Shown here piece after piece: positions 2,187 to 7,163 of a DNA stretch of 7,163 nucleotides. The notes beneath the pieces were generated by a model. The model was not told where the DNA came from, made no database searches, and saw only the letters and a list, made by a program, of their open reading frames with translations. The stretch is from Phycisphaera sp. (GTDB lineage Bacteria > Planctomycetota > Phycisphaerae > Phycisphaerales > Phycisphaeraceae), in contig JARFRI010000048.1 in NCBI GenBank assembly GCA_029287335.1, positions 1-7,163 of the forward strand. The letters are read 5' to 3'. A program made the translations under genes and the position numbers. Each line of letters starts with the position of its first letter. Position 1 is the first letter of the stretch.

Positions 2187-3380
2187 TTAGCTGAGCTTGA
2201 CGCGGTTGAGCGTTACGATCAGTTCGCTGGTCTGCTGCCGGATCGTCTCGATCTCGGCGTCTTCCGCGTTGAGCGAGAGCAGCAGCTCGGTCGCCCGCTC
2301 GCTGATCGCGGGGAACCCATAGCCGTTGCCCGAGCCTTTGAGCTGGTGGGAGATGAACTCGAGTGTCTCGTAGTTGTTCATTGCGTTGGCGTCCCGCAAT
2401 TCATCGACATAGCCGGCTAGGCCGCGCGTGAACTCGGTCAGCAGCGGTCGCATGTCGAGGTCGTCTTTGAGTTTGGAAAAGATCGGTGCGGTATCCGCCG
2501 AGGCGTTGATGCCGATGAGCTGGTATGCCGCCTGCGCGAGCTGCTCGCCGGTGAAGGGTTTTTTCAGGAGCAGGTCAGCGCCAGCCTTGTGCATGAACGC
2601 TTCAAGCTCTTCGGATTCGTCCGATGACATCGCGATGATCGGGGCGGTGAATTGGTTTTGTCGAAGCTCTCGGATCAAGTCGAGCCCGCTGGTGGTGCCC
2701 AGCTTGTAGTCCACGAGTAACAGATCAAAGACCTGTTCTTGGACCTGGATCAGTGCGTTGCGTGAATCCGAGCAGCTCACCACCGCGAGCTTGGCCTGGG
2801 TCAACCAATGGCTCATCAACTTTCGGTCGCTGGCATAATCGTCAATGACCAGCACGCGGCTGGACAGCTCGACCACCTCGTTCTCGTCCGTCTCGGGGCG
2901 ATCGTCCGCCAACTCACGCAGGTAGCGCGTCTCTTCGCTCGGCGACAGGCTGACAAACTCGCTCAGGTCGATGGGCTCATCAAAGGCCACGCCTAGCTCG
3001 TGGATCGTCCCCTGGATATGTCGGATGTGCCGGACCGTGCCGAGGATGTTGTGCAGCATGCCGTTGTTGGATTCGATGCTCAACTCGCACCGTGTGTTTT
3101 CATGAACATATCGCCCGTGGACCAGTGCCGCGCCCCATCGGCTGAGGTTGCGCGCGAGCATGGAGAGCTTGGTCTCCCCCCCGCCATGGTGCTTCAGGGT
3201 GAGGACCGCTTCGTTCTTCGTGCAACTGACGCGCAGTCGGCGTTGGTTGTCGTTGTCGTCTTGACGGTTGGCCTGATCGATCGCCCACAAGAGCTTGGCC
3301 TTGTCCCGTTCGCTCAGACGAAGGGTCTGGATCGGTAATTCACTTCGGTTCGTCATGATGCCTAAGCCAAGGGGGTACAT
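2187..3380 (-). CDS. PilZ-REC-HPt three-domain signalling protein
   Basis: A 397-residue cytoplasmic signalling protein with three modules. Residues about 45-140 look like a PilZ domain, a family that often binds c-di-GMP: N-x-S-x-x-G is present as NLSRWG (78-83) and the fold end as GVAFD (130-134). The upstream arginine motif is imperfect (RRLR, 47-50), so nucleotide binding is uncertain. Residues 175-290 are a phosphoreceiver domain with acidic pair D180/D181, phosphoacceptor D224, S252 and K274 (KKPF). Residues about 305-395 are a histidine phosphotransfer domain with H345 in SHQLKGSGNGYG. No kinase, GGDEF or DNA-binding output is present, so it probably relays phosphate between partners under a PilZ input. 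The ATG at 3380 has GAGGGA 11 nt upstream; the ATG at 3356 (MTNRSE) is an alternative with no clear ribosome site. It appears monocistronic. Confidence 0.88.
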   Translation of the reverse strand: MYPLGLGIMTNRSELPIQTLRLSERDKAKLLWAIDQANRQDDNDNQRRLRVSCTKNEAVLTLKHHGGGETKLSMLARNLSRWGAALVHGRYVHENTRCELSIESNNGMLHNILGTVRHIRHIQGTIHELGVAFDEPIDLSEFVSLSPSEETRYLRELADDRPETDENEVVELSSRVLVIDDYASDRKLMSHWLTQAKLAVVSCSDSRNALIQVQEQVFDLLLVDYKLGTTSGLDLIRELRQNQFTAPIIAMSSDESEELEAFMHKAGADLLLKKPFTGEQLAQAAYQLIGINASADTAPIFSKLKDDLDMRPLLTEFTRGLAGYVDELRDANAMNNYETLEFISHQLKGSGNGYGFPAISERATELLLSLNAEDAEIETIRQQTSELIVTLNRVKLS

Positions 3381-3639: not shown

Positions 3640-4389
3640 TTACAGCCGGCTCATCCGCCACACCGCACGGAACAGCCCCGCCACCGCCTCGCGATCGACC
3701 GTCCTCGTCGGGTAGTCCAGGTTCAAGGGCTCCAGGCGGATCCGGCTCCCCTCGTCCTCAAAAAACACACGCTTAAAGGTGCTCTCATGGTCCGGCTCAA
3801 GCCTGGCAAAACAATCGCTGCCATCGACCACATCGGCCAAGGGCGAAAACACCACGATGTCGCCGGCGCGATAGTCCGGCGTCATCGAGTCGCCGCAGAC
3901 CGTCGCGGCAAACGCATCCGGGTCGTTGCCACCGTGCAACCCGGTGTAGCCCGGCACGACGACCGCGTCATCGCTGGCCCGGGCGGGGTAATCCATGTCC
4001 GTAAAACCTGCGGGATACCCCGCCGCGACCTTGTTAATCAAGGGAACGCTCGCCCCCCGGAAGCCCCCCCGCAAGTCCCCCCGGAAGCTTTCAAGGTCCT
4101 GCGGGCAATGGGGCTGAGGGGCGCTGGCCTGTTGGGCGCGCTGGAGTTGCTCGCGGATCGCCTGGGGCGTCCGCGCCCACTGCGCGGCCTTGCACAGGCT
4201 GCTGTCATGCACCGCTAACGCCGCCTCCAACCGGACCAGCACCTTCATCGATGGCGGGTTGTTCACCCGACCATTCTCAATCATCGACAGGTATCCCGGC
4301 GTCACGTCCACACGATCCGCCAGGCCGTTGAGCGTCAGCTCACGACCCCGCCTCAAACGACGAAGCAGCGATCCAAATGACGTGTCCAT
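3640..4389 (-). CDS. HTH-XRE / S24 peptidase repressor (CI/LexA-type)
   Basis: A 249-residue DNA-binding repressor predicted to inactivate itself by RecA-stimulated self-cleavage. The XRE helix-turn-helix occupies residues about 5-58 (LTLNGLADRVDVTPGYLSMI, 18-37). After a variable linker, an S24 peptidase domain covers about 115-249. The nucleophile Ser168 is in VCGDSMTPDYRAGDIVVFSP and the general-base Lys206 is in TFKRVFFE. A122-A123-G124 (KVAAGYP) is the likely Ala-Gly cleavage site. I chose the ATG at 4389 because it begins just before the HTH (MDTSFGSLLRRLRRG); an in-frame TTG at 4431 would add 14 residues without domain character. It is divergent from the HTH gene at 4535, and paired inverted repeats lie between them, the arrangement of a lysogeny-type or SOS switch. 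Chromosomal LexA is less likely given the PLINKVAAGYP-type phage-repressor sequence. The linker contains a G-rich 12-nt tandem repeat. Confidence 0.9.
   Translation of the reverse strand: MDTSFGSLLRRLRRGRELTLNGLADRVDVTPGYLSMIENGRVNNPPSMKVLVRLEAALAVHDSSLCKAAQWARTPQAIREQLQRAQQASAPQPHCPQDLESFRGDLRGGFRGASVPLINKVAAGYPAGFTDMDYPARASDDAVVVPGYTGLHGGNDPDAFAATVCGDSMTPDYRAGDIVVFSPLADVVDGSDCFARLEPDHESTFKRVFFEDEGSRIRLEPLNLDYPTRTVDREAVAGLFRAVWRMSRL
4051..4086 (-). repeat. 12-nt tandem repeat with G6-G7 runs inside the repressor linker
   Basis: On the coding (minus) strand three 12-nt units occur in a row: TTCCGGGGGGAC, TTGCGGGGGGGC and TTCCGGGGGGCG. They encode FRGD-LRGG-FRGA (residues 102-113), between the HTH and the S24 domain. 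Each unit holds six or seven consecutive G, giving three G-runs within 36 bp. This is prone to slippage and able in principle to form a G-quadruplex in the coding strand. Confidence 0.8.
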
Positions 4390-4426
4390 GGGATGATTCC
4401 GGGGGCGGTTGCGGACCTCATAAAAG

Positions 4427-4442
4427 TTCAATAACGATTGAA
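4427..4442. promoter_or_regulatory. Putative operator O1 (16-bp inverted repeat)
   Basis: TTCAAT-AACG-ATTGAA is a perfect 6-bp-arm inverted repeat. It ends 6 bp before the -35 box of the rightward promoter and lies 38 bp upstream of the repressor ATG. It shares the pattern TTNAA-N6-TTNAA with the second site at 4461-4476. Binding by the S24 repressor is inferred from position and symmetry. Confidence 0.55.
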
Positions 4443-4448
4443 AAAACC

Positions 4449-4477
4449 TTGACAGAATGCTTAAAATCGGGTTTAAT
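4449..4477 (+). promoter_or_regulatory. Strong sigma70-type promoter of the rightward operon
   Basis: A perfect -35 TTGACA (4449-4454) is followed after exactly 17 bp by TTTAAT (4472-4477, five of six -10 matches). Transcription would start near 4484, about 50 nt before the ATG at 4535. The surrounding DNA is AT-rich compared with the neighbouring genes. No equally good promoter is visible for the leftward repressor. Confidence 0.75.
4461..4476. promoter_or_regulatory. Putative operator O2 overlapping the -10 box
   Basis: TTAAA-N6-TTTAA is a 5-bp-arm inverted repeat whose right arm coincides with the -10 hexamer. It matches the O1 site in length and outer bases (TTNAA-N6-TTNAA). The centres of the two sites are 34 bp apart, roughly three helical turns. 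A protein bound here would block RNA polymerase. Confidence 0.45.
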
Positions 4478-4534: not shown

Positions 4535-4963
4535 ATGGCCCTCTATCAGACCCAGGCAACCCAGCAAAACCTCGACCGACGGACCGCCCATCGCCTCGGC
4601 CCTGAACAGATCGTCCGCCTGGCACAGGCCCTGCCCGCGGATGATCGGCTGCTATTGGAGCGGCGCTATGCCGACGGCCTGACCGTTACCGATATCGCCC
4701 GGCGAAGCCGACGCTCCGCCAAGAGCATCCGTCAACGCATCGACCGCCTCACCCAACGCCTGGCCAGCCCCGAGTTCCGCTTCACGCTGCTGTACCAGGA
4801 CAAGCTGCCCCGCACGATGCGCCGCAGCGCCACGCTGCTGTTCATCCAGGGCCGGTCGCTGCGCGAAACCGCACAGCTCACCAAGAAAACCCTGCACCGC
4901 ATCCGCTGCGACCGGGCCTATCTGCAAACGATTGCCCGGGTGCAGGAGATCAATGAGTCCTGA
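4535..4963 (+). CDS. Small sigma-region-4-like protein with two HTH segments
   Basis: A 142-residue basic protein, first gene of the rightward operon behind a strong promoter and a good ribosome site. Residues about 24-76 resemble sigma70 region 4: LPADDRLLLERRYADGLTVT, then DIARRSRRSAKSIRQRIDRL, in the order length-helix, turn and recognition helix. A second HTH-like segment covers about 97-132 (LFIQGRSLRETAQLTKKTLH). There is no sigma region 2, so it is unlikely to act as a complete sigma factor; it is more likely a DNA-binding regulator or a phage late-gene-activator-like protein. Divergence from the S24 repressor suggests it is the main repressed gene. Its TGA stop (4961-4963) overlaps the start of a heptamer repeat element. 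No specific family is recognised. Confidence 0.8.
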   Translation: MALYQTQATQQNLDRRTAHRLGPEQIVRLAQALPADDRLLLERRYADGLTVTDIARRSRRSAKSIRQRIDRLTQRLASPEFRFTLLYQDKLPRTMRRSATLLFIQGRSLRETAQLTKKTLHRIRCDRAYLQTIARVQEINES

Positions 4964-5046
4964 GGCTTGCGGCTTGAGGCTTGTGCTTAAACAGACAAGC
5001 CACCTATTCGCGCAGACCCCAAGCCTCACCCCTCAAGCCTCAAGCC
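4962..5046. repeat. Heptamer-based inverted repeat element (GGCTTGA family)
   Basis: The left arm at 4962-4983 is three heptamers, GAGGCTT-GCGGCTT-GAGGCTT, plus G. The right arm at 5021-5046 is AAGCCTC-ACCCCTC-AAGCCTC-AAGCC. Heptamers 1 and 3 of the left arm pair perfectly with those at 5035-5041 and 5021-5027; the middle one is degenerate. The spacer is 37 bp. The element starts at the stop codon of the upstream gene and ends 8 bp before the next ATG, so it fills the whole gap. Similar repeats are, from memory, dispersed in planctomycete genomes. It would fold into a long hairpin in the operon mRNA. Confidence 0.75.
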
Positions 5047-5054
5047 AAATCCCC

Positions 5055-5774
5055 ATGATCACCCTGCCCCTCCAACACGATGTCCAATCCCGCGCCACAC
5101 CCACCGAGCGATCCATGCAGATCGCAGTGATGTTCGGCCTGTCCCTCGATGGCACCCAGACCCACACCATCATCCCACCCATCGAACTGACCCTCGCTCC
5201 CGGCACCATCGTCTTCGTCACCGGCGTGTCCGGCGGCGGCAAGTCGACCCTGCTGCGATTGATCCACCAAGGCATCGACGAGTTGGCCGATACGAACCAG
5301 CCGACCCCCGCAGTGGTTTGCAGCGATCACTTAACCGATATGCCGGGCGAAGCACTGGTCGATGCGCTCGCGATGCCGGAGGGGCAATTGGATGCTGCAC
5401 CGTCGCCCGCAACGCTTGAGCAGGTCTGCCACTGGCTGAGCCTGGCCGGGCTGAATGATGCGGCGGTGATGCTGCGCAAGCCCGACCAGCTTTCCGAGGG
5501 TCAGCGGCATCGGCTGAAACTCGCCCAAGCCATGGCTGTTGCGCAGCGCCGCCCCGAGCCTTGGTCCGTCCTGCTGATCGACGAGTTCGGCTCAACGCTG
5601 GACCGCACCACCGCCTTCGCGCTGGCGCGCAGCCTCCGCCGATGGGTCGTGAAGTCCAATGTCTGCCTCGTGTGCGCAACGACCCACGACGACCTGCTCG
5701 AACCGCTGGCCCCTGATGTGCTCGTCGAGGTCGGGCCGGGCGGTAAGTGTGATGTGCATCGACGGATTCTCTGA
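5055..5774 (+). CDS. Stand-alone ABC-type ATPase (COG2401-like ATPase half)
   Basis: A 239-residue soluble ATP-binding cassette protein. Walker A is GVSGGGKST (57-65), the ABC signature LSEGQRHRLKLA (146-157), Walker B VLLIDEF with D176/E177 (172-178), the D-loop STLD (180-183) and the H-loop H211 (ATTHDD). All catalytic motifs are intact, but the Q-loop glutamine is not obvious. There are no transmembrane segments and no permease gene nearby, so transport is unlikely. A GNAT acetyltransferase gene follows. This pairs the two domains that are fused in the family I recall as COG2401 (ABC-type ATPase fused to a predicted acetyltransferase). The frame is open upstream to an ATG at 4932, but that start would overlap the previous gene and translate the repeat element. 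I prefer the ATG at 5055 (MITLPLQHDV), although it lacks a Shine-Dalgarno sequence. Substrate and partners are unknown. Confidence 0.85.
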   Translation: MITLPLQHDVQSRATPTERSMQIAVMFGLSLDGTQTHTIIPPIELTLAPGTIVFVTGVSGGGKSTLLRLIHQGIDELADTNQPTPAVVCSDHLTDMPGEALVDALAMPEGQLDAAPSPATLEQVCHWLSLAGLNDAAVMLRKPDQLSEGQRHRLKLAQAMAVAQRRPEPWSVLLIDEFGSTLDRTTAFALARSLRRWVVKSNVCLVCATTHDDLLEPLAPDVLVEVGPGGKCDVHRRIL

Positions 5775-5789
5775 GTGCCGAACCAAAAT

Positions 5790-5926
5790 TGAACCACGAA
5801 GGCACGAAGAACACGAAGGGAAGCAAAAATCTATTCCTGCCTTTGTCATAAAAACCTTACGGCTTAGCAATTGCCACTTGTTTTATTCATTGCCTTTCTT
5901 CGTGTCCTTCGTGCCTTCGTGGTTCA
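5790..5926. mobile_element. CACGAAG-type hairpin element (REPIN/MITE-like)
   Basis: A 36-bp left arm (5790-5825, beginning TGAACCACGAAGGCACGAAG) and a 36-bp right arm (5891-5926) are reverse complements at 32 of 36 positions. Each arm carries three CACGAAG units spaced 8-9 bp apart. The 65-bp interior is clearly AT-rich. The element lies 15 bp after the ATPase stop and 33 bp before the acetyltransferase start. It has no coding capacity, and short ORFs through it are artefacts. The structure fits a pair of inverted REP sequences moved by a transposase in trans; that mechanism is inferred. Confidence 0.75.
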
Positions 5927-5959
5927 CTATCCCGTACTCAATTTGATCCATATCCAATC

Positions 5960-6742
5960 ATGCTCACCCTTCCCCTCCGATTTCAATCGCTTGACCGACA
6001 CGATCGCGGCGACGACCTGCCCATCGTTGTCGGCTGCCGTGCGGATTATCAGGCGCTCAAGGCCCACCACTATCGGCCGGGCAACCCGATGACGATGATG
6101 CGGATCCTGACGATCTGCGACGCGACGCCATCGGCGACCGATCGCTACCTGGCTCGACCGGTTACGCCACAACCCATCGCGGTACTGATCGAGTCGTTGC
6201 CTTCGTTGTCGTGTCGGCTGCGCGATGAGGCGCTGGGCGGGCGCTACGGCCACCTTCGGCCTAAGCCGCGGTCGCAACTGCTTAACGAAGAGCTGCGGTG
6301 CATCAGCCGAGTGATTATCGATCCGCGGTGGCGCGGGCTTGGGTTGGCGGTGCGGCTGGTGCGTCATGCCTTGGCGACGGCGACGACGCGCTACACCGAG
6401 GCGCTGGCGGTGATGGGCCGGGTCAGTCCGTTCTTCGAGCGTGCGGGGATGATTGCTTACGAGCGGCCCGCCCTGCCGGCGGTACAACGCGCACTGGATG
6501 CGCTGCGTTTTGCGGGGATCGAGCCGAATAGCCTGGCGATGCCGAGGGCGATTGAGCAGCGCATCAACGCGATGCCGACACCCAAACAGCAACTGCTCAC
6601 CAAGGAGCTGACGCGGTGGTACCGCACCGCTGGCGGGCGAGGTGTGTCCAAGTCGCCGAGCCTGGGACAGGTGCTCGGTGCCGCGCGGCGCGGCCTGCTG
6701 GCCAATCCGATCTATTACCTCAAGGAGAATCCGCATGTCTGA
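5960..6742 (+). CDS. GNAT-family acetyltransferase (COG2401-like acetyltransferase half)
   Basis: A 260-residue protein with a GNAT fold in its middle. Motif A is ISRVIIDPRWRGLGLAVRLV (115-134), with the acetyl-CoA pyrophosphate loop R-x-x-G-x-G as RWRGLG (123-128). A motif-B-like segment follows at SPFFERAGMI (156-165). The N-terminal 110 residues and the C-terminal 90 (ending in PIYYLKENPHV) are outside the GNAT core and may bind the substrate. Together with the upstream ABC ATPase it reproduces the domain set of fused ATPase-acetyltransferase proteins, so the two probably act as one complex. The acceptor substrate is unknown. The ATG at 5960 has no Shine-Dalgarno, but the first 19 nt are nearly identical to the start of the ATPase gene. 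The gene's 3' end overlaps the ParB-like gene by 8 bp. Confidence 0.82.
   Translation: MLTLPLRFQSLDRHDRGDDLPIVVGCRADYQALKAHHYRPGNPMTMMRILTICDATPSATDRYLARPVTPQPIAVLIESLPSLSCRLRDEALGGRYGHLRPKPRSQLLNEELRCISRVIIDPRWRGLGLAVRLVRHALATATTRYTEALAVMGRVSPFFERAGMIAYERPALPAVQRALDALRFAGIEPNSLAMPRAIEQRINAMPTPKQQLLTKELTRWYRTAGGRGVSKSPSLGQVLGAARRGLLANPIYYLKENPHV
6723..6727 (+). promoter_or_regulatory. Ribosome binding site of the ParB-like gene
   Basis: AGGAG lies 7 nt before the ATG at 6735 and inside the last codons of the acetyltransferase gene. It is the best Shine-Dalgarno in the operon and fixes the start of the overlapping gene. Confidence 0.75.
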
Positions 6743-7163
6743 TCATCCCCTGCATGAAAACGCGCAGCTGCCGATCGATCGGCTCGACCCGCACCCGCTC
6801 AACAGCAACGTGATGCCCAAGGCGCTGCTGGGTAAGCTGGCCGAGGAGATCCGGCGCACCGGCCTCTACCCGCCGATCATCGTCCGGCCCGTCGGCGATC
6901 GCTATCAGATCCTCGATGGCCACCACCGTGTCCAGGTGCTTCAACAGCTTGGCCATGATGCGGCGAACGTCGTGAGTTGGCCGGTGGACGACGAGCAGGC
7001 GTTGTTGATGCTCGCGTCGCTAAATCGCTTGCAAGGCGACGATGACCCACGGAAGCGAGCTGCCCTGCTTGCCAAGCTGCGATCCTCGATGCCGATTGGT
7101 GAACTGGCGCAACGCGTGCCCGAGGACAGTGCTCGTTTGAAGAAACTGTTGGCGCTCAATGCT
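6735..7163 (+). CDS. ParB/Srx-fold protein (3' end missing)
   Basis: An open frame of 143 codons without a stop, cut by the right edge. Residues about 11-85 form a ParB-type nucleotide-binding domain: LPIDRLDPHPLNSN (12-25), then KLAEEIRRTGLYPPIIVRP (34-52), then YQILDGHHRVQVLQQLG (57-73). In ParB proteins that last position carries the GERR-like phosphate-binding motif; here it reads GHHR. Residues about 105-143 (IGELAQRVPEDSARLKKLLA) look like the start of a helical or HTH region. The ATG overlaps the preceding stop by 8 bp and has a strong ribosome site, so expression is probably coupled to the acetyltransferase. No parA precedes it, and the context points away from chromosome partition towards phage-type or defence-type ParB proteins. 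Roles as a CTPase, DNA-binding protein or nuclease are all possible. Confidence 0.85.
   Translation, partial: MSDHPLHENAQLPIDRLDPHPLNSNVMPKALLGKLAEEIRRTGLYPPIIVRPVGDRYQILDGHHRVQVLQQLGHDAANVVSWPVDDEQALLMLASLNRLQGDDDPRKRAALLAKLRSSMPIGELAQRVPEDSARLKKLLALNA

What the first reader, a model, noticed from the sequence alone, without database searches (positions are those of the whole stretch)
4535..7163. Repressor-controlled cassette: HTH protein, ABC ATPase, GNAT acetyltransferase, ParB-like protein
A soluble ABC ATPase with intact catalytic motifs, a GNAT enzyme and a ParB-fold protein lie in one direction behind an inducible-looking promoter. The first two reproduce, as separate genes, a domain fusion I recall as COG2401. 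No transporter, partition or biosynthetic context explains them. The set could be a prophage early or packaging-adjacent module, a DNA- or protein-modification system, or a defence or stress system. The 8-bp overlap of the last two genes argues for a functional unit.
Basis: partly seen in the sequence, partly recalled or inferred. Interest (0 to 1): 0.8.

Follow-up and report, generated by a model that had tools for sequence, protein, structure and literature searches.

The report
DNA-packaging operon of planctomycete gene-transfer particles
These genes are the DNA-loading half of a phage-derived set of capsid genes that about half of the sampled Phycisphaerae bacteria carry as ordinary chromosomal genes, likely a gene transfer agent (a tamed virus that would package pieces of its host's own DNA), in a phylum for which our paper searches found none reported.

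Summary
The cassette is real, but its meaning lies outside the window, which is the end of a contig in a fragmentary genome. In relatives the operon continues past ParB into a small-terminase-like protein and a phage large terminase (TerL) with intact motor and nuclease motifs. The order (divergent self-cleaving S24 repressor; then sigma-r4-like HTH, ABC ATPase, GNAT, ParB, TerS-like, TerL) recurs across the planctomycete class Phycisphaerae. Tailed phages, including a Phycisphaerae prophage, carry the same module directly before portal and capsid. In cassette genomes the portal, scaffold and SU10-type capsid genes mostly lie at a second chromosomal locus. Capsid gene and cassette TerL co-occur in 111 of 247 class genomes (11 TerL only, 4 capsid only, 121 neither). 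The window's own genome has portal-scaffold-capsid on another contig, behind the same 16-bp palindrome that precedes the cassette. TerL follows host families and sits apart from prophage TerLs. Best reading: the packaging operon of an ancient, vertically inherited gene transfer agent, probably damage-inducible, with ABC-GNAT(-ParB) as a predicted DNA-base modifier acting before packaging. Particles, packaged DNA, tail genes and transfer are not shown.

The parts
3640..4431 (-). S24/HTH repressor, divergent; ATG at 4389 is the likelier start (the 4431 TTG lies inside the operator)
   Evidence: Pfam Peptidase_S24 8.3e-16, phrog_4 repressor 1.8e-25. Ala-Gly cleavage site, Ser and Lys invariant in 23 of 23 aligned homologues.
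4427..4442 (.). predicted operator, perfect palindrome TTCAAT-N4-ATTGAA
   Evidence: GTTCA-N8-TGAAC with at most 1 mismatch before the HTH gene in 45 of 74 loci, against 2.7% of 1480 random segments. The same 16-bp palindrome lies before the portal gene on contig C399 of the same genome.
4449..4477 (+). sigma-70-like promoter TTGACA-17-TTTAAT
   Evidence: read directly from the sequence
4535..4963 (+). sigma-70 region-4-like HTH protein (142 aa), predicted transcription activator
   Evidence: Pfam Sigma70_r4_2 8.5e-8; conserved in place in the synteny survey
5055..5774 (+). soluble ABC ATPase (239 aa)
   Evidence: ABC_tran 1.1e-11; phrog_293 8.5e-27, the PHROG of phage nickie's ABC gene beside its GNAT
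5960..6742 (+). GNAT-fold acyltransferase (260 aa), predicted DNA-base modifier
   Evidence: phrog_886 2e-10; AlphaFold model pLDDT 88.9, GNAT fold
6735..7163 (+). ParB-like protein, N-terminal 143 aa; runs off the contig. In relatives TerS-like and TerL follow
   Evidence: ParB_N 5.8e-8, phrog_723 5e-16; continuation in L029-L055

Best explanation
The cassette is the DNA-packaging operon, TerS-like and TerL genes included in relatives, of a phage-derived gene set whose portal, scaffold and capsid genes mostly sit at a second locus of the same genomes, and this set is likely a vertically inherited gene transfer agent of the class Phycisphaerae. Shown: the gene order, intact TerL motifs, co-occurrence with the capsid gene, portal-scaffold-capsid in the window's own genome, and a TerL tree that follows host families. 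Inferred: DNA damage (RecA) would make the S24 repressor cleave itself and leave its palindromes, turning on the packaging operon and, at least in the window's genus, the capsid cluster. The sigma-like HTH protein would then drive transcription. The ABC ATPase and the GNAT, with the ParB-like protein as DNA-binding helper, would acyl-modify the DNA to be packaged. TerS and TerL would load host DNA through the SPP1-type portal into SU10-type capsids. Release and delivery to kin cells are assumed by analogy with known GTAs.
For: Operon continues into TerS-like and TerL: six genes in order in 25 of 31 order-level loci and 31 of the 80 best genome-contig loci; HTH-ABC-GNAT-TerL in order in 27 of 31 and 64 of 80. 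TerL: Walker A (WAxRGGGKT), Walker B (RCDE) and the nuclease acidic residues are invariant in 25 of 25 sequences; PHROG TerL 2.4e-17; solved phage terminase nuclease 2.8e-12. Phages place ParB/ABC/GNAT/TerS/TerL before portal and capsid; Phycisphaerae prophage L264 has ABC-GNAT-ParB-TerS-TerL-portal-...-capsid. SPP1_portal in 42 of 46 cassette genomes, 2 of 14 controls; SU10_MCP 2.2e-86. Capsid and cassette-type TerL over 247 class genomes: 111 both, 11 TerL only, 4 capsid only, 121 neither. Own genome: portal 1.1e-22, scaffold-like 5.8e-7, MCP 1.3e-31 on contig C399, same palindrome upstream. L299, L300, L303 and L304 hold cassette genes and portal-capsid within 20 kb. Cassette TerLs form one clade apart from prophage TerLs (100/98); 7 of 8 host families with several rows unbroken. 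TerL and capsid distances correlate, r 0.82, Mantel 0 of 2000. dN/dS 0.17-0.66 in 25 valid gene comparisons from five genome pairs. Repressor cleavage residues 23 of 23.
Against: No particle, packaged DNA or transfer was observed. No tail gene was recognised: the genes after the capsid (c2, c6, c4, c7-c10) have no convincing PHROG or Pfam match. 11 cassette-type genomes have no capsid hit, one of them (G003) in the window's own genus at 98% completeness and also without the SPP1-type portal; 4 of 46 cassette genomes lack the SPP1_portal match, among them the complete chromosome G057. Some genomes of families f2, f8 and f13 lack recognisable ParB or TerS, and in two f9 loci (L239, L249) TerL stands alone. 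Before the portal gene the operator with at most 1 mismatch is in only 2 of 31 loci (control 0.9%), so co-regulation rests on the window's genus and G030. The capsid gene is interrupted by prophage-like inserts in several genomes. The compared genomes are related, so the co-occurrence odds overstate independence; no host marker tree was built.
Confidence: 0.76

Rival explanations
1. Phage-satellite-like or defensive use: the host keeps terminase and capsid genes to hijack or spoil infecting phages (decoy capsids, misdirected packaging), with gene transfer at most a by-product.
For: The repressor looks damage-inducible, as expected for sensing prophage induction; a prophage with the same packaging module occurs in the class; large serine recombinase elements sit inside the capsid gene in four genomes, as if in conflict.
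Against: No integrase recognised among the window's large ORFs; no defence family beyond general matches; class-wide, mostly single-copy, host-following inheritance is unlike mobile satellites.
Confidence: 0.1
2. The particle genes are kept, but for something other than DNA delivery, such as a protein nanocompartment or a lysis/killing device, with TerL doing DNA repair or degradation.
For: No tail genes recognised; some genomes keep TerL without a detected capsid gene.
Against: TerL motor and nuclease motifs are invariant and a portal is retained in 42 of 46 genomes, which fits DNA entering a capsid best.
Confidence: 0.08
3. A set of old, independently decaying prophage remnants.
For: Interrupted capsid genes in several genomes; ParB and TerS not recognisable in some.
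Against: Purifying selection, invariant catalytic residues, host-congruent tree and strong co-occurrence of two mostly separate loci.
Confidence: 0.03
4. Active chromosomal phage whose genome is simply scattered.
For: Head and packaging genes are present.
Against: Where TerL and capsid gene are on one contig they lie a median of 36 kb and up to 0.98 Mb apart.
Confidence: 0.03

Closest known systems
RcGTA-type gene transfer agents of Alphaproteobacteria
   Same: phage-derived head and packaging genes fixed in host chromosomes, vertically inherited, spread over several loci (PMC9662315, section 3 and passages read)
   Different: SU10-type capsid here, extra ABC-GNAT-ParB module, LexA/CI-like self-cleaving repressor; no tail genes recognised; function untested (RcGTA's capsid type and regulation recalled)
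Brachyspira BhGTA (VSH-1)
   Same: DNA-damage inducible (mitomycin C) and its only identifiable terL lies outside the structural cluster (PMC9662315, passages)
   Different: other host phylum; BhGTA is experimentally shown, this one is not
SSU5-like phage-plasmids, Nickievirus, Rhizobium RHEph10-type phages, Pasteurella phage Pmp13
   Same: ParB - ABC - GNAT - DNA-binding/TerS - TerL order (in the linear Cyrano record GNAT is at the end and TerS at the start; in Pmp13 one 366-aa 'hypothetical' gene carries the GNAT match and no separate ABC gene is listed)
   Different: these are phages with portal and capsid following; 22-26% identity to the window GNAT in six Pseudomonas phage records
ABC ATPase-coupled GNAT predicted to acylate a DNA base (jumbo-phage survey PMC7824862, passage in section 3.4.7)
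   Same: ABC ATPase plus GNAT pair
   Different: reported there from a few jumbo phages; here inside a terminase operon; chemistry untested in both
Phage Mu Mom (GNAT DNA modifier)
   Same: GNAT fold; Mom structure 8bv8 is rank 27 in the Foldseek list (E 2.5e-3)
   Different: no profile similarity (hhalign probability 0.2)

Membership tests
Gene transfer agent (features listed in PMC9662315, section 3) | uses caudoviricete-derived proteins to form caudovirion-like particles | tested here: inconclusive
   TerL, SPP1-type portal, scaffold-like and SU10-type MCP found; no tail gene recognised and no particle seen
Gene transfer agent (features listed in PMC9662315, section 3) | mostly encapsidates random host DNA | not testable with these tools
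   needs sequencing of DNase-protected DNA
Gene transfer agent (features listed in PMC9662315, section 3) | genome fully endogenised, often over multiple loci | tested here: met
   cassette and capsid cluster at two chromosomal places in most genomes: median 36 kb apart in the 46 genomes with both on one contig, range 2.5 kb to 0.98 Mb
Gene transfer agent (features listed in PMC9662315, section 3) | own genome cannot be fully packaged | not testable with these tools
   head capacity unknown; spread of the loci makes it likely
Gene transfer agent (features listed in PMC9662315, section 3) | mostly vertical inheritance, co-diversification with hosts | tested here: met
   TerL tree: 7 of the 8 host families with several rows are unbroken, f9 needs 2 changes; capsid distances track TerL, r 0.82. 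Tested against family labels; no host marker tree was built
Gene transfer agent (features listed in PMC9662315, section 3) | packaged DNA is delivered to other cells | not testable with these tools
   experimental
Temperate prophage | contiguous packaging and head-tail module | tested here: not met
   in most loci no portal follows TerL and the head genes lie elsewhere; exceptions with TerL and head genes within 20 kb: L298-L307 except L302's partial TerL at the contig start
ParB partition system | ParA partner and parS sites | not tested
   no ParA recognised among the window's large ORFs; ParB_N domain only; parS was not searched
Mom-type DNA modifier | sequence-profile similarity to Mu Mom | tested here: not met
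   hhalign probability 0.2; only the GNAT fold is shared
Small terminase subunit (TerS), for the 150-160 aa gene before TerL | HTH plus helical oligomerisation domain resembling solved TerS | tested here: inconclusive

The most novel reading that the evidence does not exclude
A class-wide gene transfer agent of Planctomycetota that chemically marks the DNA it packages: a damage-released operon in which an ABC ATPase-GNAT-ParB machine acylates host DNA bases before a dedicated terminase loads it into SU10-type capsids, with the marks protecting the cargo in recipients. Temperate elements counter it by integrating into its capsid gene.
Probability: 0.3. Interest if true: 0.93.

Novelty: new variant of a known kind. 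Interest (0 to 1): 0.84.

Why it matters
The functional GTAs listed in the classification paper (PMC9662315, section 3) come from alphaproteobacteria, a deltaproteobacterium, a methanogen and a spirochaete. A class-wide, vertically kept candidate in Phycisphaerae would be an independent taming of a phage in another phylum, which makes old questions testable: how often phages become GTAs, what holds them for so long, and how cargo is chosen. It also gives the ABC-GNAT-ParB module of several phage groups a definite place, next to the packaging motor.

Tried and rejected
Prophage: rejected, see rivals. Orphan terminase without a portal: this was my reading after Phage_portal PF04860 hit only 10 of 30 cassette genomes (11 of 46 when repeated) and the portal of the related prophages was strong only in the phage-type genomes, with weaker hits in G541 and G549; (SPP1_portal in 42 of 46) overturned it. 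L066/L067 looked like diverged GTA portals but read as prophages, L066 with its own TerL. HK97 capsid PF05065: 9 of 30, sporadic. Phage_portal_2: 19 of 46, partly multi-copy, read as prophages. The portals and capsids of prophages L246, L247, L262, L264 and L268 were first named by eye and confirmed only at the end (L268's capsid was not tested). Mom membership: no profile match. Viral-contig scans: the ABC query gave none; GNAT gave one locus (L198); TerL gave 38. The operator motif was noticed in the same loci in which it was then counted, so its counts include the discovery set; near-duplicate genomes remain in the 74. L029's 'ABC' is another transporter; its two dN/dS rows were dropped. 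The four capsid-only genomes include G000, whose contig ends before TerL.

Paper searches. By title, abstract start and, for PMC13055281, PMC12213060, PMC11237797, PMC8597652, PMC12507015 and PMC11312105, the passages on the search terms, none reports a GTA in Planctomycetota; PMC12946183 does not hold the words Planctomycet- or Phycisphaer-. The other papers listed were not opened, apart from PMC9662315, PMC7947584 and PMC7824862 cited here, and most subscription papers are not held. PMC8597652 lists short 'incomplete' prophages with tail genes in Phycisphaerales. PMC7947584 (passages) places a Zavarzinella prophage TerL near RcGTA TerLs; whether it is related to this TerL was not tested.
Full report
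WHAT WAS CHECKED. The window is contig C336 of a 2.33 Mb, 419-contig, 70% complete genome and ends at base 7163 inside the ParB-like gene. To the left lie an RNase R/II-type RNB protein (3-2186) and, on the minus strand, a response regulator with a weak Hpt match (2187-3380). The class name Phycisphaerae is inferred: contig lengths tie several G genomes of the window's genus to records titled Phycisphaeraceae or Phycisphaerae.

THE OPERON GOES ON. The GNAT was found in 38 of 61 genomes, own included (35 of 49 good ones), almost always once. In those genomes the genes after ParB encode a 150-160 aa protein and a phage large terminase. Over 31 order-level loci (window included) HTH-ABC-GNAT-TerL are in order in 27 and all six genes in 25; the four others are three cut by contig ends (window, L027, L029) and one rearranged locus (L052). 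Of the 80 best loci of the named genome collection (354 contigs encoded a relative) it is 64 and 31; the 16 others are 15 near contig ends and rearranged L119. In 16 further loci, 10 of them from other families of the class, it is 12 and 3; in f9 loci L239 and L249 TerL stands alone. The repressor is divergent upstream in 23 of 31, 51 of 80 and 5 of 16. The 80 records are planctomycetes by title (many Phycisphaerae or Phycisphaerales, others only Planctomycetota), apart from one titled Cyanobacteria and one titled only 'bacterium'. G046 and G037 lack recognisable ParB and TerS.

PHAGE PARENTAGE. SSU5-like phages (Cyrano, ST13-OXA48phi12.3), Rhizobium phages RHEph10 and RHph_N1_15, and Nickievirus carry ParB-ParB-ABC-GNAT-DNA-binding/TerS-TerL, then portal (unlabelled in RHph_N1_15). 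Pasteurella phage Pmp13 has ParB, a 366-aa protein that matches a GNAT query, TerS, TerL, portal. Within Phycisphaerae, prophage L264 (G427) has ABC-GNAT-ParB-TerS-TerL-portal-...-capsid, and L263 a ParB-like gene, ABC/GNAT, TerL and portal with an S24 gene upstream. The prophage portals tested are phrog_145, as in phage nickie (1.4e-96), and L264's capsid is Phage_capsid_3, so they share the packaging module with the cassette genomes but not the same head families. Outside the class, 18 same-phylum genomes matched TerL at E up to 1e-3; the best two, about 200 bits, are prophages L246/L247 with a phrog_145 portal and capsids of phrog_1328 (SU10_MCP in L247).

THE HEAD GENES ARE ELSEWHERE, NOT MISSING. 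I first took the cassette for an orphan terminase. Pfam SPP1_portal then hit 42 of 46 cassette genomes (14 control genomes: 2). Reading portal regions gave a conserved cluster: portal (PF05133, phrog_64), scaffold-like (PF06810, below cut-off, 6.6e-8), SU10-type major capsid protein (PF17236, 2.2e-86; phrog_1328), a ~215-aa protein c2 with 1466 database relatives (none of the 120 listed bears a Pfam domain), and either small membrane/lipoprotein-like genes or c7-c10. The capsid profile also matches solved capsids, SU10 among them by recall of the entry (7z45, 2.4e-11; best 9ny2, 4.2e-33).

CO-OCCURRENCE. In one and the same sample of 247 class genomes (at least 90% complete, own genome added), TerL is in 128 (E up to 1e-30) and the capsid gene in 115 (E up to 1e-20). 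Six TerL genomes were set aside as phage-type because TerL scored low and the prophage portal was found in each, in five of them beside TerL (in G490 on another contig). The table is then 111 both, 11 TerL only, 4 capsid only, 121 neither; without setting aside it is 111, 17, 4, 115. In the 46 genomes with both on one contig the median distance is 36 kb, range 2.5 kb to 0.98 Mb. In L299 the HTH, ABC and TerL genes lead, with a few small unlabelled ORFs between, into portal-scaffold-capsid, which looks like the ancestral arrangement. The window's own genome has portal, scaffold and the start of the capsid gene on contig C399 (L308). Against: G003 of the window's genus has neither portal nor capsid hit, and the complete chromosome G057 has no SPP1_portal hit.

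INHERITANCE AND SELECTION. In a 57-row TerL tree the 50 cassette rows form a clade (100/98) apart from the prophage TerLs. Families f1 (16 rows), f2, f5, f6, f8, f12 and f13 each need one change (f12 weakly, 73/88) and f9 needs two; the viral-contig TerL L163, on a long branch, is nearest. L163 has a phrog_64 portal next to TerL, the PHROG of the cassette genomes' portal. The capsid tree is less resolved, with f1, f2 and f12 needing two changes each, but TerL and capsid distances over 21 genomes correlate (r 0.82, Mantel 0 of 2000). Both fit vertical descent; no host marker tree was made. dN/dS by NG86 is 0.17-0.66 in 25 gene comparisons from five genome pairs. The TerL catalytic residues are invariant in 25 sequences, and so is a four-cysteine motif that also occurs in L163 and in the split TerLs of viral contigs L161, L164 and L194; my pattern did not find it in the six prophage loci tried.

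CONTROL. The repressor keeps the Ala-Gly cleavage site and the Ser-Lys dyad in 23 of 23, so RecA-stimulated self-cleavage is predicted. A palindrome GTTCA-N8-TGAAC with at most one mismatch precedes the HTH gene in 45 of 74 loci (20 exact) against 2.7% of 1480 random segments and 0.5% of 1520 shuffles. Before the portal gene it is there in only 2 of 31 loci (L284 of the window's genus, exact; L314 one mismatch), control 0.9%. In the window's own genome the shorter form TTCAAT-N4-ATTGAA stands once at each locus; composition predicts 3e-6 per 400 bases, and it occurs once (in L054, a cassette locus) in 502,497 bases of 27 relatives' loci. That form was chosen after seeing the window copy. In family f1 a GAF/sigma-54 activator gene is divergent from the portal in four genomes and in the own genome (Pfam run on two of them).

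VERDICT. A gene transfer agent-like, class-wide, phage-derived system; the window holds its regulator and the start of its packaging operon. Of the six features that define GTAs in PMC9662315, two are met here, one is inconclusive (no tail gene, no particle), and three need the bench.

Noticed in passing
L312 (G258), L311 (G425), L310 (G049), L287/L313 (G011); perhaps L314 (G030): The capsid gene of this system is interrupted near codon 57-62 (HEWLED motif) by inserts of about 7-12 kb (size not clear in G049) with a large serine recombinase (Resolvase + Recombinase + Zn ribbon) at the edge, in four genomes of four families: temperate elements seem to use the GTA capsid gene as attachment site. 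In G049 the two gene parts lie on opposite strands.
   Followed up: partly
L160-L181, L194 (viral contigs): TerL relatives matched only over the ATPase half in most of these contigs; in L194 a separate nuclease-like protein is seen by eye, and some have a ParB-like gene nearby. L194 has a 450-aa protein of phrog_7858, by eye methylase-like in front and GNAT-like at the end.
   Followed up: partly
window 5790-5826 and 5890-5926: Inverted repeat (CACGAAG type) between ABC and GNAT, with many copies on other contigs of the genome: a dispersed intergenic repeat.
   Followed up: no
window 4960-5050: GAGGCTTG/CAAGCCTC-type repeats between the HTH gene and the ABC gene; similar short matches on other contigs.
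   Followed up: no
L030:15578-16153, L031:13736-14662, L032, L035, L250: After TerL in the window's genus and two other genera of its family: a protein with an excisionase-like HTH and, by eye, a membrane stretch (HTH_17 2e-6; phrog_66 4e-8), role unknown.
   Followed up: no
L308:2928-3911 and cluster c11 in L284, L287, L294, L295: A GAF/sigma-54 activator gene divergent from the portal gene in family f1: possible second regulator of the capsid genes.
   Followed up: no
window 2187-3380, minus strand: Response regulator (Response_reg 1.2e-20) with a weak Hpt match and, by eye, a PilZ-like front; its stop codon lies directly against that of the RNB ribonuclease gene.
   Followed up: no
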